Below, one piece after another: positions 1,171 through 35,854 of a stretch of 64,000 bases of DNA. The stretch spans positions 186,001 through 250,000 of the forward strand of contig JAGTXK010000026.1 of the NCBI GenBank assembly GCA_019096195.1, read 5' to 3'. This stretch comes from Boletus sp. NGJ. Lineage: Eukaryota > Basidiomycota > Agaricomycetes > Boletales > Boletaceae. The position numbers were made by a program, and so were the translations under genes. A model generated the notes under the pieces. That model did no database searches. It saw only the letters and a list, made by a program, of their open reading frames with translations, and was not told the DNA's origin. Within the stretch, counting starts at the first letter, position 1. The number at the start of each line of letters is the position of its first letter.

Positions 1171-3425
1171 TGTGATATCTACTACATATGTAATGCATTC
1201 AAACACTTTGATTAATGTGTCCCGTTATATGTACCCGAGTGACAACACAACAACCACATGGGATATCTAATCAATAACTTGAGGGTCCCATAGCCTGATT
1301 CCTCCTGATGCTGATCTATTGTGAGCCTAACAATGTAGGTGAGAGGAGAGTAATGCACACCATTAGATGGACCCCCATGGGCAAGGGTTGAGATGGAGTG
1401 GTGGCTTGTTGTGTCTGATGGGAGGTGAGCTGATGTGACAAGGTCCATCATCACCAGAAGAGACACACTGAGTCAGTTCCCCTTGCATCTGTAGCACCTT
1501 GTTCACTACAAGAAGCACCTTCGTTCAGCTGCTTGGGAACAGTAGTCTTGCTGTGTGATTTATTCTATAACATGTGAGGAGTCCTGCATCCAAACTTGAG
1601 GCACAACAAACCTTTTGTTTTCTGAAGGATCTTGCAGCTACTTGCTAGAATAATATGTTAGAGACACTGCATCCAATCATGTATCAAGGAACAACACCCA
1701 CTGGAGTAAGTTGACCTGCAGCCATCCTCGAAGGTCCCTCTTGCCTGTCATCCACTCTTGCTGGTGAGTGGGAAGGAGATTGACGATCAGTAGGCTTATG
1801 TGACTTTCCAACAAGTTGACCGAGCTTGTGTGACATTGGGTCCTTGTTACTTCTCCTGAACGTTGTCTGCAGCCACCTCTTGACCCCCATAGTGCCTTTG
1901 GATGACTCGAGATTTTCCTCACAAAGTGCCTCTGCAGGGAAGGTCACTGGCGGGTACACTGATGGCTATGCTATGACATGAGACGGCAGTATCTCATCCT
2001 CCTGGGGCTCAGCAGAGGATGTGGTGGACAGAGACTCCAATAGTGTTAACATGGAAGCAAGAGGAGATTAAAGTGATCACTAACCTTGTCATAATTGAAC
2101 TCATCAATAGACATGCCCGACCACACCTCGGTCTATGCTATAGTGAGAACTCACCTCAATTGGAGAATGAATGAACTACCTCAAGAAACTTGTTGTTATC
2201 TTTGTTGTATCCCTTAGAGCCAAGTGGACTGGATTTTTCCTTTGTCATACACAATGGAGTCAGCATAACTTTTTTGGCAGCAGAATGACAATATTTTACT
2301 GCAGTGTTAGGTGCTTCAGTGTTGGGGCGGCCTGATGTTGAAGGTGGCTAGTCTTGTTGTACCTTAAGAGTAGATATCTACATGTCAACATAGGGGGCTT
2401 ATGCAACATGGTGGGACTATAAAGGCACAAATACTTACATGGAATGGACCATACAAGTCTGTGAGCACATTGCTGAGGTGACGAACAACAATTTTCCCAT
2501 TGCTTTCTCCATTCACAAGATAGCTGCTGTCCCAAGAGATGGCAATTGACTGTATCTGTTCACTTTCTTCAATGACAGGGCCAGTCAGAGAGTGAGTCAA
2601 TGTGTCCAGAAACAAGATCGAACAGTTTCCAAAGGTGGCGATGAATTTTCCATTGGAGGTGAGAGCAAGAGACTGGACACCACCAGGAATTTGCAGTTCA
2701 GCAAGCTGGGAACCAGTCAACACATCAAAAGACTTGATTTTGTCGTCCTTGGATGTGGCAAAGATTTGTCGACTGTTGCTTGACCATGCTAGATGTGGTC
2801 CCCAGTCAGAGGAATCATTGGGCCTCTGAAGGTGTTTTCCCCTCAAGTGCTGCTAGTCCAGTAATCAAACAGGTTGATTACTCGGGAACATGTCATATTG
2901 TTATCCAGCATAACACTAGAGGAGTGACTGAAGCGAATCTGGGTGTGGTGGTGTCAATGGTGATGAGCTCATTGCCATTGAGACTGTTGAAAATGTGGAC
3001 TGAACTGGCATCCCAACAAGCAGTGGCAATGTGCTTGTCATTTGGGGAGAACTAGATTCTAGTGATATAATTGTCATACTTGAGTGGGCCAACAAGTCGC
3101 TGTCCAGTGTCAATTGTCCAAATGCTCGCATTGAAAGTCTCAGTGGCAAACCGGGTCGAATCTGTGGAAATGTCCACTGCCAACACCTCATTTGATCTGC
3201 CCTCCACGTCGATAACCTTTTCATGCATCTCTCCATCCCACACACTTGCTCCCTCCTTAGTCCCATAAACTATCCACTTGCTGTTCCTCAACATGGAAAT
3301 GGCGTACACTGTCATTCCTGTTTGCTTTAAGACCTGTTGACCATCTGCAAGTCGCCATCATTGAATCCCACCGTCACTCCTGCCCAAAAGATGCTCTCCA
3401 TCAGGGTGGAATGCAACTGTGTATA
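1170..3425 (-). pseudogene. WD40-repeat protein, copy 1, 3' part (dead)
   Basis: Minus-strand frames at 3315-3052 and 2846-2385 give WD40 repeats such as WDGE, SNGKFIAT and WDSSYL, matching block by block the better copy at 26060-28450. The 3' region (about 1170-2300), with Pro/Ser-rich exons, is also shared. This part is broken into several frames. Compared with copy 2 it has lost CpG to TpG/CpA almost everywhere. A 122-bp LTR-like insert sits at 2794-2915, and the 5' end of the gene has been moved 16.4 kb away, to 19850 onward, by a Copia insertion. Repeats of this kind form a beta-propeller protein-binding platform. The native role is unknown, and this copy is surely non-functional. Confidence 0.85.
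2794..2915. mobile_element. 122-bp LTR-like insert with CTAGA target repeat
   Basis: The insert begins TGTGGT and ends ATAACA. It is flanked by CTAGA at 2789-2793 and again at 2916-2920. Its right part is nearly the same as the end of the 872-bp solo LTRs at 4686-5557 and 7121-7992. The paralogous gene at about 27895-27915 has no insert at this point, so it shows the empty site. It looks like a short derivative of that LTR family. Confidence 0.8.
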
Positions 3426-3867
3426 TAATGAGTTCAAGCAAAGTCAGGACACCACGCACTTCAGGCGTGTCTGTGCAATAAGGTCTCAGTTGTTGCACTT
3501 CAGGCAGACAGACTGTGTATTTACCTGTGTGATAAGGTCTATATACATAGTGATTAGACATGGTTTATGTAGGTATCGAGTGGTAACTGCTCACCTCAGT
3601 TGTTGCGCTTCGGGCAGACGGACTGAGGTGTTGTTCTGAATACATCAAGTTTATATACAAAGGGTAAGAACAATGAAGGAGAAGTATCATATGGCATTGA
3701 TTTGGCAAATGGACGCAACAGAGCATAGAGAATGAAGAATTATGTAGTAGAAATGTATACCGAGCGGTCTCACAGTGCCTCAGCACTTTCCATGCTCCCA
3801 GTTGACATGTGGGTGATATGGTGATGTTTCACTGTGCAGCTGCGCGCATGCTTGCTTGATTTCAACA
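3426..3867 (-). repeat. Copia LTR (3' LTR in element sense)
   Basis: This 442-bp block is a direct repeat of 19408-19849. On the minus strand it starts TGTTGAA. The outside flank is GTATA at 3421-3425. It has lost more CpG than its partner in the half nearest 3867. Confidence 0.92.
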
Positions 3868-4031: not shown

Positions 4032-4685
4032 TCAATATGCTTGGTATGAGCATGGTACTGATGGTCTTTTGGGAGTGTGATTGCTGATTGATTGTCGGAA
4101 AAAAGACTGAGTGCAGTTTTGAGTGGGAAAAATACTTTGTTGAGGAATGAATAAATATGAATGTTGTGAAAGTGAGAGGAGATGCTCCTGGCAGTTGCGC
4201 ATGACTTCTATTCTGAGAAGCCAGTGCAGTTTGCCAAGGTCCGTCACTTCAACATGTTTATGCATGCTCATTTTGGTAGCAGCAATAAGAGCAGGAGACG
4301 TGGCAGTGATGGTGCAGTCATCGACATGGACTATAATGATTACTAATGACTTTTCTGACCATTTGATGAAGACAGCTTGGTCAACTTGGCACTATGTGAA
4401 TCCCATTCGTGAGACAAGGATTTCAATGAGTTTTTGATACCATCGTCGGCCACTTTGTTTGAGTCCGTACAACATTTTTCTGAGCTTGCACACTTTGTGC
4501 AGGTGGTTTAGGTCAGCATATCCAGGGGGTTGTCACATGTAGATGCGTTTGTCAGCAGCTAGTTCTCCATTTGGATATGTACCTTTCACATCAACTTGAT
4601 GTAATTCAAGGTCATGTTGGGCGGCAAGTGCGAGGACTGTATGAATGGATGTAAGCTTGTACCATACTATGTTTCTGGCAGCATC
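4032..4685 (-). mobile_element. Copia reverse-transcriptase block
   Basis: Minus-strand frames show Copia RT signatures (TSIHTVLALAA, LHQVDVKG and DLGKLHWLL). The block belongs to the outer Copia fossil and stops exactly at the left solo LTR. It is broken. Confidence 0.85.
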
Positions 4686-5557
4686 TGTTACGCCAGGTAA
4701 CAATGTGACATGTTTCCAAATAATCAACCCTGTTTGATTATTGGACTAGCAGAACTTGAGGGGAAAATACCTCCCAAGGCCCAATGGTTCCTCAGACTGG
4801 AGACCAACTACTAGCTTTACATAGAGTGTCCTGGTTGCCTCTACAACCAATGGTGAAGTCTTGGATTTACCTCAGTGGCACAATCCTCCGAGAAGGAAGG
4901 GCAGACTGGAATGCGGATGCCAGCGACCAAGTGTCCTGGGCTTACATGGCCTAGTGCTGGTGGCGGAGTCCTGGGCTTATACGGGCCAACCTCTGTTGGA
5001 GTTGGAGTTGCCAAAGCTTTAAAAGCAGGTTCAAACGGCAATGAGGCCACACAAGGGCAATCACCTCCAGAGCGGGAGTGAGCTTCTGAGGTGGGTGGAA
5101 CCAAGAGCTGGAGAAGCTGGGTAGATTACATGGGAAGTTGTGTAGATCTAGGTTAGAGTTACATGAAGGGCCAGTGTCCCTATATATAGGCCCTGCCCAT
5201 CTAGGGCAGGCTTCGTATCGTATATGGTAATCGTAAGTCGCAGACAGAAGATTACCATAATGGATCAAGGCATCAGTCAAATGGTAGGTTGGAATACTAG
5301 GCTGTGTGCGAGAGAGCACAGCTGAGGAGGCAATGTCTATGATCAGATCAAAAGAGGTGAAATGCATGTATCAATGAAATAGGAGGGCGGTGTCCAAACC
5401 AAACAGGTAACTTCCTAGCAAGGGAGTTCCAGATGGAGTAATGCCTGAGTTGGTGTTGCAGGGGAATCTCTGGTCTGAGTCGAAGAATAAGTTGTCCCAT
5501 AGTCCTATGGGGGGTGAAGGGAGAGGAAAAGATGTACCCCCTCCTGTGACCATAACA
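4686..5557 (+). repeat. Solo LTR of a second Copia-like family, left copy
   Basis: The 872-bp repeat starts TGTTAC and ends ATAACA. It has the same length as, and is inverted relative to, 7121-7992. The flanks are GCATC (4681-4685) and TAGAC (5558-5562), which do not match each other but each match a flank of the other copy. It carries a 138-codon open frame identical in both copies, which is LTR sequence and not a gene. Confidence 0.9.
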
Positions 5558-7120: not shown

Positions 7121-7992
7121 TGTTACAGTTATAGGAGGGGGTACATCTTTTCCTCTCCCTTCACCCCCCATAGGACTATGGGACAACTTATTCTTCGACT
7201 CAGACCAGAGATTCCCCCGCAACACCAACTCAGGCATTGCCCCATCTGGAACTCCCTTTCTAGGAAGTTACCTGTTTGGTTTGGACACCGCCCTCCTATT
7301 TCATTGATACATGCATTTCACCTCTTTTGATCTGATCATAGACATTGCCTCCTCAGCTGTGCTCTCTCGCACACAGCCTAGTATTCCAACCTACCATTTG
7401 ACTGATGCCTTGATCCATTATGGTAATCTTCTGTCTGCGACTTACGATTACCATATACGATACGAAGCCTGCCCTAGATGGGCAGGGCCTATATATAGGG
7501 ACACTGGCCCTTCATGTAACTCTAACCTAGATCTACACAACTTCCCATGTAATCTACCCAGCTTCTCCAGCTCTTGGTTCCACCCACCTCAGAAGCTCAC
7601 TCCCGCTCTGGAGGTGATTGCCCTTGTGTGGCCTCATTGCCGTTTGAACCTGCTTTTAAAGCTTTGGCAACTCCAACTCCAACAGAGGTTGGCCCGTATA
7701 AGCCCAGGACTCCGCCACCAGCACTAGGCCATGTAAGCCCAGGACACTTGGTCGCTGGCATCCGCATTCCAGTCTGCCCTTCCTTCTCGGAGGATTGTGC
7801 CACTGAGGTAAATCCAAGACTTCGCCATTGGTTGTAGAGGCAACCAAGGACACTCTACGTAAAGCTAGCAGTCAGTCCCCAGTCCGAGGAACCATTGGGC
7901 CTCTGGAGGTATTTTCCTCTCAAGTCCTGCTAGTCCAGTAATCAAACAGGTTGATTACTCGGGAGCATGTCACATTGTTACCCAGTGTAACA
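7121..7992 (-). repeat. Solo LTR of a second Copia-like family, right copy
   Basis: This is the inverted partner of 4686-5557, with equal length (872 bp). The central several hundred bases are essentially identical, while the outer 150-180 bp at one end differ at roughly one base in ten. The flanks are GACGC (7116-7120) and GTCTG (7993-7997). Confidence 0.9.
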
Positions 7993-8880
7993 GTCTGATC
8001 CTTTGATCATGCAGTATCCTCCTGTGAATGTGCTTGAGAAACTGAGTTCATCAAGCCAACCAATCAACACAAGTGTGTATCCAACTTTGGGTGAAAATAG
8101 CACTTCAGTAAGACACAATTTCAATATGTCATACCCATTTAGGACTTCTATAATCATGTCACCAACTCCAGTGGCAGAAAACAGCTGTTTATTTGCAGTG
8201 ATAAGTGATTTGGATGTGATTGGGGTGATTGATTCAAACTGATTGCAATAAGGGGATATGTGGCGCATTGTTCCAGAATTGTACAATTCCACTCAGTGGG
8301 TGTTATCAGTGGTGTCACTGACTTCCATTGCAGTTTCACCATTATCCAGGTGAGTTGTCTTGTTGATGACTTCATCATCTGACAGATCATCCTCCTCTGC
8401 TAGTGAAAACCAATCATCTGTGTCAAGGTCTCCACCTTCTGATGTGTCCATTTTGTTGTCCAACAATTTGAACATCGGCTTTGACAGCTTGTCATGATCC
8501 TCACTTAGGGGATCGGAAACTCCAAAGACTCCATCATCGAAATCAGAGTCAGCAACTATATTGGCTGCATTGGTGGGTCCCTTCTTCTTCTCTCCTGATT
8601 TGTTGTGATATGGTGACAAGTGCTTGTCTGATCCACAGATCCAGCAGGTACACAGTCTTCAACCAGCATTTCCACCTCTCCTGGTGCCTCGGCCACATCC
8701 TCGGGCAGATGATTCTGAGGTAAGTGACAGTGCAACATCTCTGTCTTTTGAATCTCTGTTGTTTTTCACAGGGTATCGGGCTTTCTGATGATCAGCCTCC
8801 TCCGCAACAATAGAGATCAGGATGTCAGGTGACAACATCTTCATTTGGCTATATGTATAGCTGAGTGGCACCAACACCAG
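7993..8880 (-). mobile_element. Copia gag C-terminal and protease-like block
   Basis: Minus-strand frames show a zinc-knuckle-like WICGSDKH stretch, an acidic linker and a protease/pre-integrase-like segment (SATGVGD, LTEVLFSPKVGYTL). The block is part of the outer Copia fossil. It is separated from the gag N-terminal block by the KDZ transposon, and it is broken. Confidence 0.8.
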
Positions 8881-8959
8881 TACTGGCAATAATCATATAT
8901 CAAACTGTGCTACTACCACAAACACAGTGGCACATTAATCACACTTGTGAGATTCTCAT

Positions 8960-9660
8960 GAACAGTGATGTATGAATGATATATGACTACCTGCTATTAC
9001 ACCCTCACCCACTGTCCACACCATAATGTGATGTATCACTGCTTATTGGTACCAGCATAGGATGTAGTATTATATAAGGAATGATATATTACCAATGCTC
9101 CCCACTACCACCACTCATTTGAGTCACTGGCATTTGGTGATACATCAGCCTGTCATATATCAGGGATGGCTCACAGCGACAGGGACTGATACATTACACT
9201 CACATACTGATGAATTGGTGTGTGTCCCCTTCTGAATGTGATGTATCAGGCCATGGTAAGTTCATTCGAATGCATGCTGGCATCAACAACGGGACTGATA
9301 CATCACTCTTGCCCTCAACATGATGTATCAGGCATGGTAAGTTTGCTTGCATGCATGGCCCTTCACGATGGGACTGATGCATTACTCATGCAGGCCATCT
9401 CTCTATGGTTGATACATCACACATGCAGGTTGTTCTCCACTCAATGATACATTAGGGATGGCCCTCCAGGACTGATGCATTATACATGCCAATCATACTC
9501 ATTGATGCATCTGATATATCAGGTATGGTAAGTTCATGAGTGTGTGTGGTGTCGATGACAGGACTGATACATTACTCATGCAGGCCATCTCTCTACGATT
9601 GATACATCATGCACACAGGTTGTTCCCCACTAAATGATACATCACATGTGCTCGAATCAT
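8960..9660. repeat. Left subterminal array of TGATRYATCA-like palindromes
   Basis: Variants of TGATACATCA, TGATGTATCA and TGATATATCA recur about every 30-60 bp, in both orientations, roughly 15-18 times. A similar array lies at the other end of the KDZ element. Such subterminal arrays are usual transposase-binding sites, which is an inference here. Confidence 0.8.
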
Positions 9661-9836
9661 TAGTCTATTCTTGCTAATTATTGTATGTTTCACACATCAT
9701 TGTCATGCTATCAACTGCAGATGGATATATCTCACAATGTGGACAAACAAGTCTGATTAATGGGTATAAAGATACCACCATCTCAATTCACTTCATCTTC
9801 TGTTTTCTAGACCTGACGTTAGTTATGATAACAGGT

Positions 9837-11922
9837 TCACAGATATATATACTTAGATGTTGCAGGCTTGACACCATTTGCTGACGAATGTTTCCTGGGG
9901 GCAGTGGAATCTACACCTATAGAATCTGCTATGAGATTGCGTCTTGATGGTTGATGTGGGCACCTTCTACTCGTTTTCTCAGAGATGCTTGGCAAGATTT
10001 CCTCAGATGGCACAGATACACCACCTTCATTGGTGGATAGCACAAATACACTACCCTCAGTGGTGGATGGTGGAGATACACCATCCTCGGTGGTGGATGG
10101 CAGAGATACACCATCCTTAGTAGTGGATGGCGGAGATACACCACCTTTGTTGGTGGATGGCGGCAGGGCCTCCATGGCAGAGACATGAACTGCAGGTGAG
10201 GGAGCATTGTTAATGGACAGCACAAATACAACTGTGGGAGGGGGAACCATGTTGATGGATGGTATGGGCAGTGTCTGAATGTTAACAGTGAAGATGTTAG
10301 CCATGAAGGAGGGAATCTTGTAATGGGATGGTGCAGACACACAGGTCTGCAAGCCAAACAGAGTGGGGAGTAAGATACCATCTTTTGGTAGGAAAGTTCG
10401 GAGTGTTGTTTTGGACCCATACTTTGCTAGAAAGGTATTGAGTGGATCAATGGCTAAGTGGCTGCTGAAGTCATAGTTGTAGTCAACCACATCAGAGGCA
10501 CTTATTGGATAGAAGTCCATAGTGCCATTGTGCGAGGATTCTGACCAGGTTTGTAATGTGAGTGGGGCGGCAGAATTATTTGCTGACACAATGTGTGGTG
10601 AGGTTGCGTCCGTGTAACTTGGACCTGGTATGCCTGGTAGCAAGACCTCTGCTGACATAAGACTAGAACTCGCATTAGTCACATCAGTCACATTGATGTT
10701 CTCTGGTCTGGCCTCAACATCAACTGTGCTCAATGTCTTGTCAAATGCTAACGATTAGTGAGTACCAGCCAACCAAACCCCTGCTGTTCCAATATACCAG
10801 GATCGTGGCCCTTTATTACATCAGTCCCATCAATGTTGTCTGGTCTGGCCTTGGCCATGTTCAATGGCTTGTCAAACACTAATGATTCAGTGAGTACCAG
10901 CCAACCAAATCCCTGCTGTCCCAACTTACTAGGAACGTGGCTCAGAAATTCTCTATATGGCCGTATGACACCATTGTTGAACTCTGCATAGGCTCAATTG
11001 AATGTGTTGCCTAGTTCAGTAGCGCCAACATGCAAGCTGCAGGCTTTGATTTTTCCCCCAGCTTTGGGTGTAGAACCTCCCATCAAGATACTAAATGACT
11101 AACCAGTCAGCTCCTGCAAGCCCATAAAGAATTGAGCTAGTGTCGGAGCAAGTTGGTTGATATAACTGTTGGCAATGTAAGGCTTCAGTATTGTCACATT
11201 TGCCACAAAACTCACTACTGCCTATCTTTCATTTTCCAGTCATTTTTGGTTTCTTTTCCAGCAACCAGTTCCTTCCAGTGCTTGTCAACCTTAGACAACA
11301 CCTCCGGCAACTCTTTCTTGAACATCTTGCGTGCCTTGCACATGATGGTTGCTAGGTTGGGTGAGAGCCTTTCTCTCTGTGACCCGCCTGAAGTCACTGC
11401 AGCCATAGTGTTAGCCTTGCCCACTTTGTGCGCACTGTCGATGGATGGTCGCACTTTATTCTCATAGTAGAGGCTTAAGTAAGCCTCTACTTTCTGAGGC
11501 TTGCATACACAAATGTCTTTCGATTGTATCAGGTCGGCTATCAACGCCATGTAGACTCTGGCATTTGCATTCTTTGCTACTCGAGACTTTCTTTTGGCCC
11601 TCCACTTGTTTTGTAACTTGTTCCGCAATTGCTAACATAAATCCATTAGCATGATGGCCTCAACATCCCCATGCTTGGTACATACATCTTTACGGTTTTC
11701 CACTGCCGTGGCAAGCTTGTTTTTTTGTTCTGCTGACAGTTCTGTTGTGCTAGATATGTCTGGAAACAAAACTGCTCACTTGGGATATTTTGCAAACCAG
11801 TGTTTAAAGAATTGTGCCCAAAAGCTGCTATAGTCCTGCTTTGCCTGACATTGCTCAAATTGATTGAAAAATTCCTGCAGGAATAACTCCTGCTCGGGAC
11901 TCACCCATGTTGTCGGTGACAT
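9837..11922 (-). pseudogene. KDZ-borne accessory protein, unknown function
   Basis: A minus-strand coding run starts at ATG 11922 (MSPTTWVSPEQELFLQEFF) and continues through 11628-11215 (basic, helical, with KPQKVEAYLSLYYE and SSGG-like TSGGSQRERL) to 10733-9837. The last part is a Pro/Ser-rich tail with about seven repeats of a PPSTTEDGVS-like unit. In-frame stops near 11776 and 11099, both explainable by G-to-A change, and one near 11628 suggest decay, though some breaks could be introns. The protein resembles hypothetical proteins that travel with KDZ transposons in mushrooms (from memory, not searched). It lies divergent to the transposase. No TET/JBP dioxygenase motif (HxD) was seen. The function is unknown. 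Confidence 0.55.
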
Positions 11923-12904
11923 CTTCGGCTTCAGCTAGGTCCAGCATTGCATACAGTGGGAGAGAAATGTGAACATGGTGAGAGAGACGCAATGGGAGAG
12001 AAACATGGGAAATGGGAGAAAAATGTCAAAACTTGTCAGATGGAAAGGTCTCCCTTTACAAGGGAGACATGTATGGTTCCTGACTGTTTGTTGACCCTCT
12101 GATATATCATTCTGTGGACATCTTTGCTGATGAATGTGGCTAAATTGACAGGCTTGCAAGTTAACATGAAGTTTCCTGGCACCAATGTGACCGAAGACTG
12201 TTCTCAAGAACCTTCACTAATTGCCAGTTTGCTCGTCTTTCTATGAACTACCTTCACACCCTCTCTACAGGTAATTGCTCCGAGTTGTCAGAGTCACAAT
12301 GGTGAATGGCTATGTCAGTTTCAACCACCATTCCTCTACATATACCATATCATCCTGGTCACTTCAACACAGGTAATCGCCAGAGATAGATGTATGGCTG
12401 AATATGCCACAATGGCCATGAAGATCAGTAGCCATCTGATTCCACTGCAATAATTGATAGCCACCCTTTGATTCTGCCGCAAAGATCGGTAGCTTGCATC
12501 AGCAGTAGCAGATTCACAACAGGTAGGCACCCCTCACTCTGTCATTTTGGTACCCGGTTGTCAACATTATGACTTCATAAATCTTCCATTGCACATGCAG
12601 CTGGAGTCACCAGACTAAATCTCCTATCACATGAGATGACCAAGGAGACATTAGTTTTGTTCTATGAGCTCTCTTTCCATGTTGATCATATGATGGTATC
12701 ATTTGTAGTGAACATTATTTCCAGGATTAATTAATGGTACCACAAATGAACCGAACATTGTAGCCATGAGTTGCATGAGTCACTGTACTAGAGGTCTAAG
12801 CCACCAACTCCTGGTATGCATCTAGTAGTAATTATCATCCACTCTGAGTCGTGACGCATGACTTCTCTATTTGTCCAGGTGACTGTCTGACATCCTCAAC
12901 TTCA

Positions 12905-13464
12905 ACGCTCACAATGCCATGTCCAAAGGTACATGCAACTTTGCAGGAAAGGCAGTTTGCAGCTCAAGCATTGTGTGCAAAATACTATGACTGGTGAGTT
13001 TCTTTGTTTGAAACAGACTTGACCTATCTTGACACTGGAATCAAGCCATCGAGCCGAAATCAATGCAAAGGCAAGATTCAAGCGATTGAAGGGACAAGCC
13101 ACACCCAGATATGCCATTGAAAACCCTCACAGTTTTATTGCACACTTGTTGTCTTGACAGCTTCATTGATCCTTCGGATCTCCATTCGCTCATGGATTTG
13201 CTGACTTTAGACTACATCGCTACCAAGAATTACAGTAGAATCAACACCATACACACAGCCATAGAGGAGGTTGAGAAGGCTATCAGGTGTACTATTGCAA
13301 GTTTGCCATATGAATTGGAGGAGCTGTGCATCCTGCAGGCAACTATTGGAAGAACTCTCAGAGTTATGGACAATTTATTGTGCAGTGTGATGGAGGATTT
13401 GGATATTGCAGAGATGCGGCTGCACGGTGTGCTACTCTACCAGTCACTTGGAACTACATGGTAA
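12905..13464 (+). CDS. KDZ-borne small helical protein, hypothetical
   Basis: A plus-strand frame at 13111-13464 gives a mostly helical sequence (TAIEEVEKAIRC, SLPYELEELCILQ and VMEDLDIAEMRLHG). An upstream exon may begin near the ATG at 12917 (MPCPKVHATLQERQ), with a splice acceptor CTTGACAG before 13160. It resembles a coiled-coil accessory product. No catalytic motif is visible and I do not recognise the family. It lies between the other two accessory frames and upstream of the transposase. Confidence 0.35.
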
Positions 13465-13469
13465 TTCAT

Positions 13470-13980
13470 GTCCTTCTACACAGGTTGCCACAAGGATTTT
13501 CTGCCAACATCATAGTAACAAAGATGACATGACTAGCTATTGGACCTTTACATTTGGTCACCCGCAGCAAAATTGATACCAAAGTGCACTCAACTGAACA
13601 CAATCCACCTCCAGAGTTTCCACAAGTGCTAAGGTACGTTAGTTGCATCCGAGATGTGTGCAGGACAGTGCTCACAATGTAGAAGTCACCCCAAATCTTC
13701 CTCATCTTGTCTCTCTGCTGCTCGTTCAACTCAACCTCCTCAGGGACGTCAGGGAAGACCAACACTTTGACTGGCCATCTAGTCTCAAAGTCGGAGATAA
13801 GCTTGGTAAAGTACTCGAGCTGTTCCTCACTCGAGGCAAACTTCCAATTGCCTCTCTGATAAAAGTGGTCCACAATCCATGCCATCTGGTCAATACAGAG
13901 GTCAAATGGGTAAATGTTGTAAGCACACTGACTGTGCACGCTTGCTGGCCTAGCTGCAGGTAGTAAGCCTAGATGAGTTG
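13470..13980 (-). CDS. KDZ-borne accessory protein, hypothetical
   Basis: The minus-strand frame 13939-13466 encodes an acidic, globular-looking stretch (MAWIVDHFYQRGNWKFASS, QLEYFTKLISDFETRWPVKV, VFPDVPEEVELNEQQRDKMRK), then loses coding character after about 13660. Good residue composition and its position next to the transposase suggest a real accessory gene or its remnant. It has no domain I can name, and its start is unclear because more exons may lie up to 14100. Confidence 0.35.
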
Positions 13981-14183
13981 TGGGGGAGCAATTAACTTAC
14001 ATTTTTTTGGCTTGAAGGATAATCGTTAATGCTTGCTGGCAGGTCCTCACCAACTCTTTATGAGTCCCACCCAGAAGGCCTTTCTCATGTAGAAGGCATA
14101 GTCATATATCATTATTGCTAAGTGTTTCATTTTGTCTTGATCTTTGTTACACTCACTCCATCCCTTCTTTCTTCTTTCCCCAC

Positions 14184-17100
14184 ATGTCTCGCAAGCGGGC
14201 CTCCAAGAAGCCTTGCCTTGTCAAGTTTGATGACCCAATGGCTGGGGAAGAGGTGGAATACAGGCGACATCACATATTCCACGCTCGTGAAGATGGTGAT
14301 GTTTCTGTCCAAACAGCATTTATTGCCACTAAGGCATCTGAGTCAAATGTCGACAAACTACCTGCCATGGTAGACACCTTGTACAACGCTTGGCAAGAAG
14401 TTGAACAATCAGACAAACTCACTGAATCTTTGGAGACCAATGGAGATACCAATATGCAAGGGAGAAAGAAAATAGCCAGGGTGAGTGTAATTCATCAGCG
14501 CATATACTCATTTCATGTGCAACTTTTTGCCACTAACAGGACCACCCTCTACTGCAGTGGCTTCCCAAATGAAATGCTTTCCTTGATGAATTTATCCACC
14601 TCGAAGGCCGAGGAGGTGAACAACGTGAAGCTTGTGATTGTGGTGGTAATGCTTCCCCTCAATACTGTTGCGAAGATTGTTTTGGAATGGATCTAACATG
14701 TGCTGCATGTATCCTGGCATGTCATATTACCTGTCCACTGCATGGAATTGAGGTAAGATTTTTATTTTTATGTCCCCACCATTAATTTTAAATAATGCAA
14801 ATAGAAGTGGAACAGTGACTACTTCCAACGTGTAATGCTCAAGCACTTGGGACTTCATGTCCAATTGGGACACCCTCTGGGTGTTGTGTGCTATAATCAC
14901 AAACAGGCTCCTGGAGACCACTTTGTGGTAATTGACACTAATGGTTTACATGAAATTAGCTTGAATTTTGCGGGTGTGAGCAAGCGCAAACACCATACAA
15001 ACAACTCCTTCACAGGTGTTGGTTCCCTGTGACCACAACGGAGCCACATACTGTGGTGACATTCTCAGTTCTAAAGAATTTTCATTTGCTGTCGTTGGAG
15101 TCCAAGGTATCTGCTTACAAGTTTTATTACAGCCTTGCACAACTCACTGACAACATGGGGCTTGCAGAAGTTTGAGTAAATATGTTCTTTTATTTTTCAT
15201 TCCCCATTACTGACAACACACAGGATCATTATAGCACTTTCATACGGATGACATGAGAATACCGCCATCTGAAGCAACTCAAATGTGCCAGGAAAGGGCA
15301 TGATCCGAAGGGCATAGAGGCCACATAAGAAGGCGAGTGTGTTGTAAAATGCCCTGCCTGTCCCCATCCGGAGATTAACTTGCCATGGGGTTGGGAGACG
15401 AAGGATGCTTCGCAAGGGTTTGTGTTCCCTCCAATTTCATAGGTCATGGTTACTGATTAATTATTTTTAGCTGGATCTATGCTCTCTTCATCGCAATCGA
15501 TGCGAATTTTCACTTGAAATGGAAAATGGTATTGTCAGACCACACTGATCCAAGCCTCAACCACGGATGGGCATACTTCATCGAAGAGGAATCTTACAAG
15601 GCATACTTGGGGGCTCAAGTGAACGTCTGTCAAGAGGTGAGTAAATTTGGAGATGCAACAACAAATGCTGATATCCCTGATAGCAAAGTACATGTGTCAG
15701 TCACAATGCTGTCAATATGGCCAACTCAAAATTGTCGCACAGACTGGCAGCTACTGGGGTTGGGACTGTAGACTGTGCACAACATGAAATGAAGTTGCCC
15801 AACGGTGTCGGTGATCTTCAGAAGGGAGAAAGGTAAGTATGTCATCTTTGATTATTGTCATCGCACACTTATTAGACAGGTACATAAACATGGACTATCT
15901 TGTCTTCTCAGCTGTCGCACACTTTGTGCTTATCATGTTCAACTTTTCATATGATATCACATGTCAGTGGCACAAGAAGCTGTGGACCCGTGTGTCCACC
16001 ATGCCAGAACGAATCTGTCTGAAGCACGCAAGCAAGATCATCTGCTTTTTCATTTCAAAGTTCCATCTGAAGGCCCGTGTACAAAACTGTCAGACTAATT
16101 TCTTGTTTAACTTCTCATGTTGAATAGGTTGAACCAATGGAGAAGCATCTGAACATGGCTGGTCAATGTTCAACCATGTGGCTTCAAGCACGAAAGAAAT
16201 GGGACCTGGTGCACACTGTGATCACCTCGACGATCACTTCAAAGATTCTAATTGGAAGAAACAGATTGGTTTTGGTATGCGGTGTTCGTCATTAGCCAGG
16301 ATGCTAACTTTATATTCTTGCAGGTAAAAGTATGCTACGCAAATTGACTGAAGGTCTGCAGAGTGCACAGCTTCATGGTCTCGAACTTGAGGAGCTTGAG
16401 GCTACCATTAAACCAACACTAATACAAAAATGAACCATCAAATTGCAAAATCGGAAAGATGACAAGTTGAGACCCAATCCATTTGAAAACCACATAACCT
16501 GTAAGTGTTCAATACAATGGTCACATTCACATTACAGAATGTTTCGATGCTATTTAGCCATGACACAGTCCACCATCAGGCTGCATCTTGTGGAGCAGGA
16601 AGCATGTGATCTACAAGAAGAAGCAGACAAGTCGAAGCACATGGATATCTTACCCTTCATATTGATTGCATCTGGGTTGGACATTCAAGGCTTACAGTAA
16701 GTGCCATTTTTTGGTGATTGACATGAATGTACATCTAACCATCACAAGATACTGATTGGCCAGGGATAGGGATGAACTAGGATTGCATGCGACTGACCTG
16801 CAGAAGAGTAACATTACTACACATCAGAATGCTCTCCAAAGGAGAATAGATGGATGGATGCAAGCACAGTTATTATACATGCCTTCAGTGGCAGCACTGC
16901 ATTCCATGGCAAGTGACAATGCCAAACCTGACACTGCAGAGAGGGTCAAACTCTGGTTGCCCTCGGAACTTAGTCCAGGTACTCCTTGTGATGAACGATT
17001 GAGGGCCATCGAATGGGAGCTGAGGTACTTGCAAGCTAATGATGCCCTCAATGAGGTTTGTCAGGTCATTTCATTCAGTTGCACACTCATCTCACTATTT

Positions 17101-17730
17101 TCAAAATGAACAATATTCATGGTCAGCGTGCTAATACATGCATGTGTGCTACTCTCAACCATGCAGAAAGGAAAAAAACAACAAAATAAGCCCAAATACA
17201 CTGCCGCTCGTCAAGCTCTAATCGTGCTGGGCATGTCTCTCAACAAGGAGGGGTGGGAGGATTACCTTCGTCCATTGCATGATAGCGACATGAGACATAT
17301 GACCAACATGCTAGATGGTGAGACAGAGGGGACGAGAAATTTATCATGGATTTAGAAAGTACCTGGTGTTTTGGGCAACACAGATGACAGTCTTTATGAT
17401 TGTACACCCTTGCTCTTGTGTGCTTGGATGATTACTAATTCAAATTAGGTTTGCACATCAAGTGGTACAAAGCATGCGCACGAGCAGCTCACTGGGCAGA
17501 GGACGTTGTGCTTCTTAGAGAAGAAATGTGTAAGATCTTAGCATTTTTGAAATGGGAGGGCAACCTGTGGATGCAGTGTGCATCTGCTTGTACCTTCAAG
17601 AAAGAGGCTGACTGTGAGGGGTCATCAGCTTATGCTAAACAGCAGGCAGCACTCTGATTTGCTATGCTTTCTGCATTTGAGTCTACTTGGAAGGGTATTA
17701 GACAGGTGGGCGAGGTATCAAATACAAGTC
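14184..17730 (+). pseudogene. KDZ transposase with CxC cysteine cluster
   Basis: This is a multi-exon plus-strand transposase starting at MSRKRASKKP. In order it shows an N-terminal basic segment, the CxC zinc-binding cluster near 14630-14750 (CDCGG, YCCEDC, CAACI, CPLHGIE), an LGLHVQLGHPLG-like block near 14840-14890, and a catalytic core. The core has DANFHLK with DPSLNHGWAYF (15500-15600), SYDITCQWHKKLW (15945-15985), and the acidic NGEASEHGWS plus STKEMGPG block (16140-16215). A C-terminal region follows (LNKEGWEDYLRPL; LSWI; KWYKACARAAHW) to about 17730. The three acidic catalytic positions expected for KDZ seem present. At least one in-frame TGA lies at about 14570, in a context explainable by CGA-to-TGA decay, and several frames change without clear introns. 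This copy is likely inactive. Confidence 0.85.
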
Positions 17731-17814
17731 ATGAAGTGTGATAAATCATCAATAAAGTACTGTTAACATGGTCTCCGTGTGACATTTCACTGAATATGCC
17801 ACTCATGTCCTCGT

Positions 17815-18785
17815 GCCAAGGGATATATCAGTCCAATCTGATCAAAGAAGACCATCCCTAGTGTGTGATGTATCATTGATGGCAGAACCTACCATAGTAC
17901 CAGTGTTGATATATCATCGAGGGGATATAGCAGTCAGTCTCCTCACTGGTGTGTATCAGTCCCATCGTCAAGCTGATATATAACTGTGTGAGAGCATACC
18001 CACTAGCAGCACTGATATATCATTGAGAGCAGTCTCCTCACATGTGTGATGTATCAGTACAATCGTCGAGGAGGACCGCTCTAATATATCATTGGCATGC
18101 ATGGGGGTGAAGTAGTTGAACCTGCGTGAGTGATGTATCAGTCGACGGACGTGTGTGAGAACCGTACCTACCACTAGCAGCACTAATACATCATCAAGAG
18201 AGGTCCTCGCCTGTGTGATGTATCAGTACCATCGCCAAGGAGGACCATGCCTAATATACTGTGGAAAGGGTGGCTTCCCTGCACATGTGATGTATCAGTT
18301 GACGGACATGTGCGAGATCATACCTACCACTAGCAGCACTGATACATCATCGAGAGAGGTCCCTTTGCCTCTGTAATGTGTCAGTACCATCACTACCCTA
18401 ATATGGGATGGGTAAGTAGTTGAACCTGCGTGAGTGATGTATCAGTCAACAGACATGTATGAGAGCATACCTACCACTACCCACACTGATACATCATCGA
18501 GAGAGATCTCCTCACATCTGTGATGTATCAGTACCATCATCAAGGATGACTGCACCTGATATATCATGGAAAGGGTGGCTGCCTTGCATGTGTGATGTAT
18601 TAATCATTGAGCTGTGGTTGGGGTAGTAGCGTGAAGTGATGTACTGTATCTGTGAGACAATGCGCTGATGTAACTTAGTATTGTGTAATACATAACTCAT
18701 CCGCTGTGAGACTCTGCTGGAGCATCCATGAAGCTGTAATATATCACTGATGTATTACTGGTGTGGAATGGCAGTAATGTACCAC
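17815..18785. repeat. Right subterminal array of TGATRYATCA-like palindromes
   Basis: About 20 variants of TGATGTATCAGT and GATATATCATCGA alternate in orientation. Longer units also recur, with spacers such as CATACCTACCACTA at about 18165, 18325 and 18465. It mirrors the left array at 8960-9660. Confidence 0.8.
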
Positions 18786-18833
18786 ATTCGGATGTTAATT
18801 ACCATATATTTCATACATCATTATCGCGCTATC

Positions 18834-19380
18834 AACTGGCACCAAGGTGGATTGAGGCAAAGTTGGCAAGGGAATTGGGGAGGGACTTGATGATGGTGGA
18901 TCAGTAATCCTTCTCATTGATTGTGATGCCGATGGCCGCTAACTCTTCTCGTTTGGTTCTTAGGCCATCCAGAAATTGGCAAACATCGCCATCCTTCGAC
19001 AATTTCGATTTGAGAAATTCTGTATGAAGGTCGGTCTGAGCGTAAGCCCCTTTTTCTGTGTATTCCTTGCTAACCTCCACTGCACTTGTCAGAGAGCGGA
19101 TACGCAATGCAGTTGAATCAGGGATTTGTTGAGTAAGCAAATTTTTGGCCATCTTTTCATCTTTCTTCCACTTCGCTAAGGCAGCCATCTCATTAGCTGT
19201 TGGGGTAGGCTGGGACATTGTTGGTTCCACTGACATTCCATCCAGGTGCTCCCATAAGTCCTTCACATCTACAGCCATCTGAAAGCAAAAAAGAAAGATT
19301 GCCCAGTTGGATCCATTGATCTCAAGCTTGGGCATGTTGCTCGGCAAAGTATCAAGGGTAAGAGGTGCATTCATCATCAT
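18834..19380 (-). mobile_element. Copia gag N-terminal block
   Basis: The minus-strand frame 19380-18901 reads as a Copia gag N-terminus (KLEINGSNWAIFLFCFQMAV; WEHLDGM; LAKWKKDEKMAKNLL; DGLRTKREEL). It ends at the KDZ insertion. It belongs to the outer Copia fossil, which is broken. Confidence 0.85.
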
Positions 19381-19407
19381 AGCTTCAGAGAAGCAGGGCT
19401 CATAACC

Positions 19408-19849
19408 TAATGAGTTTGAGCAAAGTCAGGACACCATGCACTCCAGGCACATCTGTGCAATAAGGTCTCAGTTGTTGCACTTCAGGCAGACAGACTGTGT
19501 ATTTACCTGTGCGATAAGGTCTATATACATAGTGATTAGACATGGTTTATGTAGGTATCAAGTGGTAACTGCTCACCTCAGTCATTGCGCTTCAGGCAGA
19601 TGGACTGAGGTGTTGTTCTGAATACATCAAGTTTATATATGAAGGGTAAGAACAATGAAGAAGAAGTATCATATGGCATTGAGTCGGCAAATGGACGCAA
19701 CGGAGCATAGGGAATGAAGAATTATGTAGTAGAAATGTATACCGAGTGGTCTCGCAGTGCCTCAGCACTTTCCGTGCTCCCGGTTGACATGCGGGTGACA
19801 TGGTGACATTTCACCGTGCGGCTGCGCGCGTGCTTGCTTGATTTCAACA
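19408..19849 (-). repeat. Copia LTR (5' LTR in element sense)
   Basis: This 442-bp block is a direct repeat of 3426-3867. The outside flank GTATA (19850-19854) matches 3421-3425. Its half nearest 19849 keeps CpG sites that the left LTR has lost. Confidence 0.92.
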
Positions 19850-20605
19850 GTATACATAGCCGGAGTGACTGGCAAGGACTATTGCTTGGTCTTACTAAAT
19901 GGTTAGCATTGCTCAATCACACCTTGGAGCTGCTACCCACCAGTGTTCGTCGACGACATCCTCCCAATGGTACGCAGTTGTCGGCTTCAAAGAGTGGAAG
20001 AACAACGTGTTTCGGTCTACTCGCCGTACGCAAACTTGTTCCGTAAACACCTTTCCTTATTCTTAAGGTCTGTTTGAATTCGCACACTACTGTCTTTGGC
20101 GCTGATTCTTATTTGGTCACCGTGAACCGGTTGTGACGACCAGGTAAACAGTCAACGTCGGCGACACCTTCCGTCGTTTCCAAGCACAATCTATGAATGC
20201 TTGTCGTGTCTACGCTGCGAGACTCTATTCACGACAACTGTACAATCCGCATTTGTCCAACTTTGAATTCACCATATTCTGCGCAAAGGCACCACTTAGA
20301 ATTCATTCTACATCCTGCAAGGTGGTTGCCTCGTCGAGATGTCCATCGAAGAGATCAAGACGCTTCATACACCCGTTTCCGTTGTCTTTTGCAAACCCAG
20401 TTAAATGTCGCCCTCCACGCGTCGCACTTTCCCCTCGGCCTATAATATGCGCTCGACAATGTGACTGATCGTCCTGCTCAGAATATCAAGTCAGTCGCAT
20501 CATCTGTTTCTTCGGCCACGCGGTTGTCGATGTCAGGGAGTTCATCTCGCATTCCACCTCAGCAAACGAGAAATGTAAGCTCGACAGACCTTTATCCGGA
20601 TGCGC
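19850..20605 (-). pseudogene. WD40 copy 1, 5' end and upstream region
   Basis: This stretch matches the upstream side of WD40 copy 2 (28430-28975), including the TTTGGTCTTACTAAA strip and a block ending at the ATTCCACCTC repeat. Relative to copy 2 it has about 200 extra bases near 20090-20300. It is CpG-rich, unlike the other half of the same gene at 1170-3425. It marks the far side of the Copia insertion site. Confidence 0.8.
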
Positions 20606-26059: not shown

Positions 26060-28450
26060 ATCAATGTGTCCCGTCATGTGTTCCTGAGCGACAACACAAC
26101 AACCACATGGGGTATCTCAAGCTGCCGCTGGCAGTGATCGATAACCTGAGGGTCCCGTAGCCTGATTCTTCCTGATGCTGATCTATTGTGAGCCTAACAA
26201 TGTAGGTGAGAGGAGAGTAACGCGCACCGTTAGATGGACCCCCGCGAGCGAGGGTTGAGATGGAGTGGTGGCTTGTTGCGTCTGATGGGAGGTGAGCTGA
26301 CGTGACGAGGTCCATCATCACCTGAAAGAGACGCACCGAGTCAGCTTCCCTTGCATCCGTAGTGCCTTGTCCACCACGAGAAGCGCCTTCGTTCGGCTGC
26401 TTGGGAACAGTAGTCTTGCTGCGTGATTTATCCTGTAACGCTGTGTGAGGAGCCCTGCATCCAAACTCGAGGCACAACAAACCTTTTGTCTTCTGATCGA
26501 TCTCGCAGCTACTCGCTAGAATAATATGTTAGAGACACTGCATCCAATCATGTATCAAGGAACAACACCCACTGGGGTAAGTTGACCTGCAGCCATCCTC
26601 GAAGGTCCCTCGTGCCTGTCATCCATTCTCGGTGGGGAGTGGGAAGGAGATCTATTCTTCCTGAACCTTGTCTGGAGCCACCTCTTGATGGTGCCCTTGG
26701 ATGACTCGAGAGTTTTCTCATGACGTGCCTCTAAAGTAGAGGGTACTGGTGGGGCATCCAACTGTGATATAACAGGGGATGGGCCCAGTGGTGGTGCCTC
26801 GTCTTCATGAGGATCGGAAGGAGAGGCTGGCGATGGAGCCTCCGGCAGCGTCAACACGGAAGCAAGAGAAGGATCACCAACTTCGCCATAGTCGAACTCA
26901 ATAACGGGCGTGCCCGACCGCACCTCGTCCTAGTATCCCATCGTGAGAACTCGCCTCGCGTGGACAGCGAACAAACTGATACCTCGAGGAGATTGTCACG
27001 GTCCCGAGGTGAGTCGACAACATCGAGATTTCCCTCTGGACATGAGGAGGGCACTGGTAGGGCATTTGACTGTGATTTGACATGGGATTGGCCCAGCGGC
27101 GGTGCCTCGTCCTCATGGGGATCGGAAGAGCCTGAGGCTGGGGATGGTGTCTTCAGCAGCGTCAACACGGAAGCAAGAGAAGAGTGTAACAATCACCAGC
27201 TTCGTCATAGTTGAACTCATGAGCGGGCGTCGACCGCACCTCGGTCTACGCCATGGTGAGAACTCGCCTCGATTGGAGAACGAATGAACTCATACCTCGA
27301 GGAGCTCGTCGTCATCTTTGTTGTGTCCCTCAGAGTCGAGTGGACTTGATTTGACAGGTTCTTCCTGTTGTCGTATGCAATGGAGTCAGCATAACCTTTT
27401 GGTGCCAGAATGACAATATCTTACCGCGGTGTTAATGTTGAAACCGCCCGATGTCGAAGGCGGCTGGTCTTGTTGTACTTTAGGAGTAGATATCTACATG
27501 TAAGGGACAGAATGGGGCTTATGCAAAATGCCGGGACTATAAAGGCACAAATACTTACATGGAATGGACCGTACGAGTTTGCAAGCACACCGTTGAGGTG
27601 ACGAACCACAATTTTCCCATTGCTTTGTCCAGTCGCGAGATAGCTGCTGTCCCAAGAGATAGTGATTGACTGTATCCGTTCACTGTCCTCGATGACAGGG
27701 CCAGTCAGAGAATGTGTCGATGTGTCCATGAACGAGATCGAACGGTCCCCGAAGGTGGCGATGAACTTGCCATTGGGGGCGAGAGCGAGAGACTGGACAC
27801 CACCAGGAATTTGCAGTTCGGCGAGCTGGGACACGTCAAAAGACTTGATTTTGTCGTCGTTGGACGTGGCAAAGATTTGTTGACCATCGCTTGACCATGC
27901 AAGCGGAGTGGCTGGAGCGAATGTGGGTGTGGTAGTGTCGATAGTGATGAGTTCGTCGCCATTGTGACTGTCGAAAACGCGGATTGAACCACCCCAACAG
28001 GCAGTGGCGATTTGCTCGCCATTCGGGGAGAACTTGAGTCCAGTGACAGCATTGTCATGCTCGAGTGGGCCAACGAGTCGCTCTCCAGTTTCAATGCTCC
28101 GAATGCTCGCTTCGTTGCGGGTAGTCCTGGCAGTGGCAAACCGGGTCAAATCTGGGGAAACGTCCACTGCCAACACCGGGTTTCTGCTCTCCACGTCGAT
28201 GACCTTTGCACGTATCTCTCCGTCCCACACGTCTACTCCCCCCATAGTCGCACACGCTATCCACTTGCCATCCCTCGACACAGAAATGGCATTCACTCTC
28301 ATTCCCGTTTGTTTTGTGACCTCTTGACCGTCTGAAACTCGCCATCGTCGAATGCCATCTTCACTCCCGCCTAAAAGATGCTCTCCGTCAGGGTGGAATG
28401 CAACTGCGTATACTTCGTCAGAGCGACCGGTGTCAAGTACTGTTGTTTGG
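26060..28450 (-). CDS. WD40-repeat protein, copy 2
   Basis: A main exon from about 28440 to 27560 encodes successive WD40 blades (YAVAFHPDGEHLLGG; GIRRWRVSDG; VDVWDGE; GLKFSPNGEQIATACWGG; LAWSSDGQQIFATS; LAPNGKFIATFGDRS; ISWDSSYLATGQSNGKI). Downstream, smaller exons give Pro/Ser/Glu-rich sequence with a tandem duplication (26750-27240) and a basic tail (KTTVPKQPNEGASRG). The first exon and start codon were not fixed, since the acceptor before VLDTG is ambiguous. The family is large in Agaricomycetes, acts as protein-binding beta-propellers, and individual roles are unknown. Codon-level conservation versus copy 1 suggests this copy was functional longer. Whether it is intact to the 3' end is uncertain. 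Confidence 0.65.
26750..27240 (-). repeat. Tandem duplication inside WD40 copy 2 (~300-bp unit)
   Basis: About 26755-26965 and 27065-27275 share long matches (AGCGTCAACACGGAAGCAAG; GGTGAGAACTCGCCTCG-like). In the coding sense both give SLASVLTL, then SDPHEDEAPPLG. One unit is therefore an extra copy of an acidic, Pro-rich exon with its intron edge. Confidence 0.75.
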
Positions 28451-28909
28451 TCTTACTAAACGGTTAGCATTGCTCAATCACATCTTGGAGCTGCTACCCA
28501 CTGGTGTTCGTCGACGACATCCTCACCAATGGTACACAGTTGTCGGCTTCGAAGAGTGGAAGAACAACGTGTTTCGGTCTACTCGTGGTACGCAAATATA
28601 CTCCGTAAACATATTTCCTTATTCTCAAGGTCTGTTTGAATTCGCACACTCGTGTCTTTGGCGCTGGCAGAAAATATGGCACTCAGGATTCATTCTGCAT
28701 CCTGCAAGGTGGTTACCTCTTGAGATATCCATTGAAAAGTTCAAGCCGCTCCATACACCCGTTTCCGTTGTCTTTTGCAAACCCAGTCCAATGTCACCCC
28801 TCCCGCGTCGCGCTTTCTCCTCGGCCTAAAATATGCGCTCAACTGCTTAGAATAACAAGTCAGTCGCTTTCTTCTGCCACGCGGTTGTCGATGTCACGGA
28901 GTTCGTCTC

Positions 28910-28975
28910 GCATTCCACCTCGGTAAACGAGGAATGTAAGATCGACAGACATACTTATCCGGATACACAAATAAA
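28910..28975 (+). repeat. Dispersed ~80-bp repeat, copy c
   Basis: GCATTCCACCTCGGTAAACG lies at the upstream end of the segment shared with WD40 copy 1. It is shorter than copies a and b. Confidence 0.7.
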
Positions 28976-34410: not shown

Positions 34411-35429
34411 CAGGCGATGCTACCTTTCATACTTAATTATGACTCACGACAAAGTGACCGATATGGGGACGGCTGGATGCTCGGTGCGTACTACGAATGG
34501 TCACGTTGACGACACGTGGTTATGATAACTTTGGAGGCACCATTCATCACTCGGAAATACGATTTTACCTCCCCAGAGGCAGGCACATATATCTCGCGCA
34601 ACTATTGATCCACGTGTCCACCTTAATTAGGCGGGTGTATGGCGCTTTAAATTTGCTTTGGGAAAATAGTATGAGAAGACGAGGTGCACTCGATGACACT
34701 GCCTTGCATACGTATTGGTGGACTCCACTTCCAAGAGCGCAGGACTTGGCAGTGATCTCTAGCATATCTGTGGGTTCCATATGAATGCCTGTGATATGCC
34801 TGTGATACAGTCTACCCGTGAACTTATGGCTGGGCGTCCAAAGGGATTACTGGTGTAGACGAGGTGTAAGAGCCCCGGATAGACATGTACTTACATCTGC
34901 GATGTCCACCTGTCCGACGTGTATAGCAGCGAGCGCGAGCTATTCCAGAGTGTCGACATATGAATATAACAAGCTGTGGTAGCGAACGGACATATATTCG
35001 TCTCCCACCTTGTCGAGAAAGGAAGTATGAGCGGTCCTTGATCGAGAGCATCCTGGTATGGACACGTGTTTTGCAGGCGGTAGTTGCAAGCGGGTCTAAT
35101 GCGGATTGTACGCTCGTGATGAACCGGGTCGTGTAGTGTAGGCGAGGTATGAGGCGAAGTCGACTGCTTGGTTAATCGTCGCAAGAATGTGACCCAGCCG
35201 GAGTAAGAATAGCGCCCAAGACATGAGGCACCTGTGTGAAGAGTCTACCTAGTATATTGAGAATACAGAAACGTATTTATACGCAACTCTGCGCACCAGG
35301 AGTAAACTGAAACACCTCGTTCTTTCACTTTTCCAACCCCACGACTGTGGACCGTTTGTGAGGATGTTGTCAATGAATACTTGTGTGTAGCAATTCTGCG
35401 GTGAGTGTGCGATGCTGACAATTCAGTAA
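34411..35429. other. Intergenic, nothing recognised
   Basis: Only short frames without domains are present. It lies between two displaced fragments of the WD40 family. Confidence 0.4.
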
Positions 35430-35815
35430 GACCCAACAATAGTACTCGAGACCGGTGGCTCTGGCTATGTATACGCAGTTGCGTTCCACCCTGACGGAAA
35501 GCATCTTTCTGGCGGGCGTGAGGATGGGATTCGACGATGGCGACTAGCAGATGGTCAAGAGGTCGGGAAGCAAACAGGAATGAAGTTGCGCGCCGTTTGC
35601 GTATCGAGCGACCATAAGTGGATAGTCAGTGGCAGTGGGACTCGCGGTGGAGGCGCAAGTATATGGGATACAGAGATGTATGCACAGGTCGTTGATGTGG
35701 AGGGCACAAAGACGGTGTATGCCGTCAACGTCTCCCTAGTCTCGACCAGGTTGGCCACCGGGACTGCGAGCGAAGCGAGCGTCTGGAGCATAACGAGTGC
35801 GACTCTGAATCGTTG
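35430..35815 (+). pseudogene. WD40-family 5' fragment
   Basis: The plus strand encodes IVLETGGSGYVYAVAFHPDG, then GIRRWRLADGQE, ASIWDTEMYAQVVDVEG and ASEASVWSI, parallel to the first blades of copy 2. It stops abruptly at about 35815. With the 3' fragment at 34255 lying upstream on the same strand, the family pieces are in scrambled order. Confidence 0.75.
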
Positions 35816-35854
35816 GCCCGCTCATATGTATGTGATGAAAGGTCATCGCCAATG

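What the first reader, a model, noticed from the sequence alone, without database searches (positions are those of the whole stretch)
8882..18841. KDZ transposon with accessory genes inserted in a retroelement gag
The roughly 9.9-kb insert has KDZ transposase hallmarks (CxC zinc cluster, DANF, SYDITCQW, STKEMGPG) and a 7- to 8-bp target repeat (ACTGGCA). It carries at least three non-transposase frames on both strands. The KDZ superfamily in mushrooms is known to travel with epigenetic genes (TET/JBP), but none was seen here, so the cargo may be a different and little-described set.
Basis: partly seen in the sequence, partly recalled or inferred. Interest (0 to 1): 0.75.

Follow-up and report, generated by a model that had tools for sequence, protein, structure and literature searches.

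The report
Dead mushroom Kyakuja-type transposon, two genes
A 10-kb fungal jumping gene of the known KDZ group, now broken, sits inside an older retrotransposon; beside its transposase it carries a second gene whose relative also lies beside a KDZ transposase in one other contig, so that gene may be a real partner rather than random cargo.

Summary
Real, with corrections. A CxC2-KDZ DNA transposon lies at 8875-18838 (9,964 bp) in a copia-type gag. The target duplication is GCACCAA (8868-8874/18839-18845), not ACTGGCA; the ends then read 5'-CA..TG-3' without inverted repeats, as reported for Kyakuja. Both arms carry a palindromic 10-mer, TGATRYATCA (9 and 12 copies, 1 between, none elsewhere in the window). 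The spliced transposase matches KDZ 217/217 and CxC2 107/107, but a frameshift and about ten in-frame stops make this copy dead; CpG is depleted two- to fivefold. A relative of that gene, with an intron at the same place, stands in the same divergent order beside a KDZ transposase on one other contig (L007), filed under a lichen cyanobacterium but probably fungal. It has no convincing Pfam or solved-structure match. No TET/JBP was detected. No other copy from this genome could be examined, so co-mobility within the species is untested. A new member of a known kind; the partner gene is the interesting part.

The parts
8875..18838 (+). Kyakuja-type KDZ DNA transposon, whole element, 9,964 bp, 5'-CACCAGT...TCAACTG-3', no terminal inverted repeat
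8868..8874 (.). left target site duplication GCACCAA
18839..18845 (.). right target site duplication GCACCAA
9029..9644 (.). left subterminal array: 9 copies of the palindromic 10-mer TGATRYATCA
   Evidence: first-order Markov mean 0.08, maximum 2 in 1000 simulations
17866..18566 (.). right subterminal array: 12 copies of TGATRYATCA within longer degenerate direct repeats
9672..9717 (+). 46-bp near-copy (80%) of the element's own right end (18793-18838), same orientation; origin unexplained
14184..17720 (+). CxC2-KDZ transposase gene, pseudogene; ten exons modelled from 14184 to about 17060, further coding pieces to about 17720 not modelled; in-frame stops at 14570, 15173 (may belong to a splice site), 15254, 15326, 16121, 16130, 16431, 16753, 17353, 17655 and a 1-nt frame change near 14960
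9840..11922 (-). divergent accessory gene A, pseudogene: N-terminal half from 11922, intron 11685-11632 (GTATGT..TTAG), stops at 11778-11776, 11101-11099, 10996-10994; Ser/Pro-rich tail with 30-bp tandem repeats 10006-10161
   Evidence: the exact frame joins and the tail as part of the same gene are inferred
12914..13461 (+). weak accessory frame C (167 aa when read by hand across one GT-AG intron and one frame change)
   Evidence: length not significant
13469..13996 (-). weak accessory frame B (176 aa open); short similarity to gene A (score 60, shuffle maximum 47, 0 of 1000)
18846..19425 (-). copia-type gag of the host retroelement, upstream part, interrupted by the transposon
8293..8867 (-). 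continuation of the gag region on the other side of the transposon (with a frame change)
3426..3867 (-). LTR of the host retroelement; outside flank GTATA
19408..19849 (-). other LTR, 93% identical; outside flank GTATA

Best explanation
A dead copy of a Kyakuja-type KDZ cut-and-paste transposon. Inferred mechanism: the CxC2-KDZ transposase excised and inserted the element with a 7-bp staggered cut (only the 7-bp duplication is shown), recognising ends that lack inverted repeats and instead carry arrays of a 10-bp palindrome (the arrays are shown, binding is inferred). A second, divergently transcribed gene (A) belonged to the element and was probably a helper of transposition, possibly the protein that binds the arrays (inferred; its place beside a KDZ transposase is shown in one other locus). 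After landing in the gag of a copia-type element that is itself inserted in a duplicated region, the nest lost CpG, which fits methylation and deamination, and both genes gathered stops.
For: Domains over their full length. 7-bp duplication, CA..TG ends, no inverted repeat, the features given for Kyakuja in PMC12730594 section 3.2.1. TGATRYATCA: 9 + 12 in the arms, 1 between, 0 in the other 54 kb of the window. L007: transposase blocks collinear with 14546-17726; KDZ 3.5e-35 and CxC2 1.4e-40; gene A relative on the opposite strand upstream (Smith-Waterman 94 against a shuffle maximum of 65, 0 of 2000; BLASTP 5e-7; tblastn against the whole window 2.4e-4) with an intron at the same position. 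L007's last 200 bases hold a cluster of short GTTAAACTA-type repeats. CpG observed/expected 0.18-0.46 in the element's parts and 0.31 and 0.52 in the retroelement flanks, against 0.98-1.08 in three blocks from 20 to 64 kb. LTR differences: 30 transitions, 1 transversion, 16 of the 30 in CpG context.
Against: Only two loci support the pairing of transposase and gene A, and L007 breaks off inside gene A. Identity in gene A is low. The structure prediction was poor (mean pLDDT 51), and no homeodomain, Myb or other DNA-binding family was listed, so the helper role is a guess. Of the seven stops lying in blocks aligned to L007 only two (14570, 15254) face an arginine, so CpG decay (CGA to TGA) is not shown for the rest. 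Pfam scores the joined gag alike for both candidate duplications. The Marasmius oreades paper says that it characterised a TIR motif of KDZ and Plavaka elements (PMC8290104, passage); which group is not said in the passages seen, and no inverted repeat is found here. Kyakuja was not told from Zisupton or Dileera by a transposase tree.
Confidence: 0.85

Rival explanations
1. The accessory frames are not part of the transposon: gene A (and frames B and C) came with a separate nested insertion or a captured host gene, and only arms plus transposase are the element.
For: A near-copy of the right end at 9672-9717 lies just inside the left arm, which could mark a separate or rearranged unit. Frames B and C have no counterpart in L007 at tblastn E 0.01.
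Against: Gene A's relative lies beside a KDZ transposase in the same divergent order in another contig. If 8875-9717 were its own insertion, 9718 should begin with GCACCAA; it reads CAGATGG.
Confidence: 0.15
2. L007 is not a fungal contaminant but a real cyanobacterial acquisition of a KDZ element.
For: The contig is filed under a Rhizonema genome.
Against: The gene A relative has a GT-AG intron and the transposase blocks fall in three different frames, as introns would give. With KDZ, only G001 itself matched among 217 genomes of its family and 388 drawn from its order; with CxC2, only G001 among 388 drawn from its class. The sample name Dictyo3468 suggests a Dictyonema basidiolichen (inference).
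Confidence: 0.03
3. The element is a Zisupton-like rather than Kyakuja-like KDZ member.
For: CxC2-KDZ domains alone do not tell the three apart, and the repeat across the junction is 9 bp, so an 8-bp duplication can be read.
Against: Zisupton has 8-bp duplications and terminal inverted repeats (PMC12730594 introduction, passage); read as 8 bp the ends here are not CA..TG, and no inverted repeat is present.
Confidence: 0.12

Closest known systems
Kyakuja DNA transposons of Agaricomycetes (Kyakuja-1_LB, Kyakuja-2_LB and others; PMC12730594)
   Same: KDZ transposase, 7-bp target duplication, 5'-CA..TG-3' ends, no terminal inverted repeats
   Different: The families described there carry a TET/JBP dioxygenase; none is detected here, and a different divergent gene is present. 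The word 'subterminal' does not occur in that paper's main text; its supplements were not seen.
Zisupton (KDZ)
   Same: KDZ transposase superfamily
   Different: 8-bp duplications and terminal inverted repeats
Plant CACTA/EnSpm and Ac/Ds (recalled, no call)
   Same: Short motif arrays under the ends, bound by an element-encoded protein
   Different: Unrelated transposase, and they have terminal inverted repeats; a parallel in working, not kinship

Membership tests
KDZ superfamily (PF18758) | KDZ transposase domain over its full length | tested here: met
   1.3e-54, 1-217/217, on a hand-spliced reading with X at stops
KDZ superfamily (PF18758) | associated CxC cysteine cluster | tested here: met
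   CxC2 1.2e-40, 1-107/107
Kyakuja | 7-bp target site duplication | tested here: met
   GCACCAA; one insertion only, and the repeat extends to 9 bp
Kyakuja | 5'-CA..TG-3' termini without terminal inverted repeats | tested here: met
Kyakuja | place in the Kyakuja branch of the transposase tree | not tested
   no reference transposases were at hand
TET+ Kyakuja | TET/JBP dioxygenase gene | tested here: not met
   no Pfam match in six frames at E up to 1; a split or PE-type gene could escape
Zisupton | 8-bp duplication with terminal inverted repeats | tested here: not met
   no inverted repeat at the ends
Copia LTR retroelement (host) | copia-type gag between two LTRs with a 5-bp duplication | tested here: met
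   pol not examined

The most novel reading that the evidence does not exclude
Many KDZ elements of mushrooms are two-gene systems: a CxC2-KDZ transposase and a divergently transcribed, undescribed helper protein that recognises palindromic arrays under the ends in place of inverted repeats, with TET/JBP as an optional third gene.
Probability: 0.3. Interest if true: 0.6.

Novelty: new member of a known kind. Interest (0 to 1): 0.4.

Why it matters
KDZ elements are known chiefly for carrying TET/JBP genes. A conserved partner gene of another kind would mean that the group has transposition machinery beyond the transposase, and would give a setting to a protein family without a Pfam entry. The palindrome arrays offer a concrete binding-site prediction for elements that lack inverted repeats.

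Tried and rejected
ACTGGCA as target duplication: rejected. Three independent accessory genes: reduced to one supported gene; frames B and C kept as weak. Helper as homeodomain or Myb: no such Pfam match listed at E up to 10 (best 0.07, unrelated families), no solved-structure match for the window protein at E up to 1 and none below 0.08 for the L007 relative; fold prediction too poor to search with. More relatives: six scans of viral contigs and tblastn of plasmids and phages with an L007 stretch gave none. The five stretches, the seven and the six genome contigs matches other than L007 were read around the match and do not look like KDZ; only L002 among them was also scanned with Pfam (three forward frames, no KDZ). 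The gag join as a judge of the duplication: Pfam scores both joins alike. 8875-9717 as a separate small element: its right-hand duplication does not match. The weak match of frame C in G001 (E 0.61) was not followed.
Full report
What is there. The window holds a nest of mobile elements in a eukaryotic genome, by its elements most likely a mushroom (inference); no whole genome is held for it. A copia-type LTR element lies between LTRs at 3426-3867 and 19408-19849 (93% identical; both outside flanks read GTATA). It interrupts a sequence whose copy, 75-88% identical in pieces, runs uninterrupted at about 26060-28964. The KDZ element sits in the gag of this retroelement. With the transposon and one duplication removed, the gag reads on in one frame through the junction and scores Retrotran_gag_2 at 5.8e-20. 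The gag has a stop of its own and a frame change downstream, so it is dead too.

Ends. Twelve exact 7-mer pairs exist between the two 200-bp boundary regions; one, GCACCAA at 8868-8874 and 18839-18845, gives an element beginning CA and ending TG. Of 300 random region pairs drawn, 13 were skipped as too close; 251 of the other 287 shared some 7-mer and 3 had one with CA..TG. The repeat extends to 9 bp, TGGCACCAA. The two ends show no inverted repeat. PMC12730594 (section 3.2 read whole, section 4.2, passages; supplements not seen) gives 7-bp duplications, 5'-CA..TG-3' and no inverted repeats for two TET+ Kyakuja families of Laccaria bicolor.

Arms. The palindromic 10-mer TGATRYATCA occurs 9 times in the left arm, 12 times in the right arm, once between and not at all in the 54 kb outside. 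First-order Markov simulations of each arm gave at most 2 in 1000 trials. The motif was picked after seeing the repeats, so the simulation is a description rather than a blind test; its absence outside the element is the better control. A 46-bp near-copy of the right end stands at 9672-9717 in direct orientation, which I cannot explain.

Transposase. Joining ten exons at nine GT-AG introns of 47 to 59 bases gives an 806-residue reading, X at stops and at the frame change, that matches the whole KDZ and CxC2 models. Stops stand at ten places, one of which (15173) may belong to a splice site, and there is a 1-nt frame change near 14960. Seven of the stops (14570, 15173, 15254, 15326, 16121, 16130, 17655) lie in blocks aligned to L007; two of these (14570, 15254) face an arginine, as a change of CGA to TGA would give. 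This copy cannot make a working transposase.

Accessory gene A. On the minus strand, frames from 11922 downwards read as one gene. Its N-terminal half is homologous to a sequence in L007, a 6.3-kb contig (JAQYWP010000513.1) filed under Rhizonema sp. PD38, found by the one genome-contig scan, with a pattern for YDIACQW (7 matches, the other six not KDZ by their reading frames). L007 holds a KDZ transposase with CxC2 whose blocks are collinear with 14546-17726 of the window. On the other strand, upstream and running off the contig, lies the gene A relative: Smith-Waterman score 94 against a maximum of 65 in 2000 shuffles. Both copies have an intron at the same place: window 11685-11632, 54 nt, GTATGT..TTAG; L007 198-151, 48 nt, GTTAGT..TGTAG. 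Gene A has three stops in the window. Its tail, the 305-residue frame 10754-9840, is longer than any stop-free run in 200 simulations; it contains 30-bp tandem repeats, and its attachment to gene A is inferred. From memory, not from any call, proteins of this look are common in mushroom genomes as hypothetical proteins.

Frames B and C. B (13996-13469, -) has a 44-residue similarity to gene A (score 60, shuffle maximum 47 in 1000; BLASTP 2e-4), noticed by eye before it was tested; it has none to the L007 relative. C (12914-13461, +) has none to gene A (618 of 1000 shuffles reach its score). Neither has a counterpart in L007 at E 0.01, a Pfam match of note or a significant length.

Decay. CpG observed/expected is 0.18-0.46 in the element's parts and 0.31 and 0.52 in the two retroelement flanks, against 0.98-1.08 in three blocks from 20 to 64 kb. 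The LTR pair differs by 30 transitions and 1 transversion, 16 of the transitions in CpG context. This fits methylation and deamination of silenced repeats; methylation itself was not measured.

How it probably worked. Shown: domains, ends, duplication, arrays, the second gene and its neighbourhood in one other locus. Inferred: excision and insertion by the transposase with a 7-bp stagger; recognition of the arrays by the transposase's cysteine cluster, by gene A, or by both. The fold prediction of gene A's N-terminus was of low confidence and all-helical and is no support.

Literature. In the listings of searches of the held library, and in the two papers opened, I saw no description of a non-TET partner gene of fungal KDZ elements. 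The founding paper (Iyer et al. 2014, recalled; cited in PMC8290104) is not held, and most subscription journals are missing, so this is weak evidence of novelty. The Marasmius oreades paper (PMC8290104, passages only) says that DNA elements make up 6% of that genome, about half of them KDZ or Plavaka, calls them understudied, and says it characterised their TIR motif.

Noticed in passing
4685-5557 and 7121-7993: Inverted repeat with 873-bp arms, 96.7% identical, inside the retroelement; its ends read about GTTAC..GTAAC. A 128-bp piece at 2788-2915 matches its ends and interrupts the similarity to the copy at 27.9 kb, so it looks like a small related insertion.
   Followed up: partly
1211-3425 / 19850-20601 and 26060-28964: Duplicated sequence, 75-88% identical in pieces, of which one copy is split by the LTR element; a third partial copy lies inverted at 35155-35824.
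   Followed up: no
about 20400-64000: DNA with CpG near 1. Among 42 chosen open frames of the whole window, Pfam matches include AMP-binding, thioesterase, adaptin, WD40, short-chain dehydrogenase and RasGEF (listed by family, not by frame).
   Followed up: partly
9672-9717: Near-copy of the transposon's right end just inside its left arm, same orientation; no matching duplication beside it.
   Followed up: partly
L007:6130-6337: Cluster of GTTAAACTA-type short repeats at the contig's end, possibly the subterminal array of that element.
   Followed up: partly
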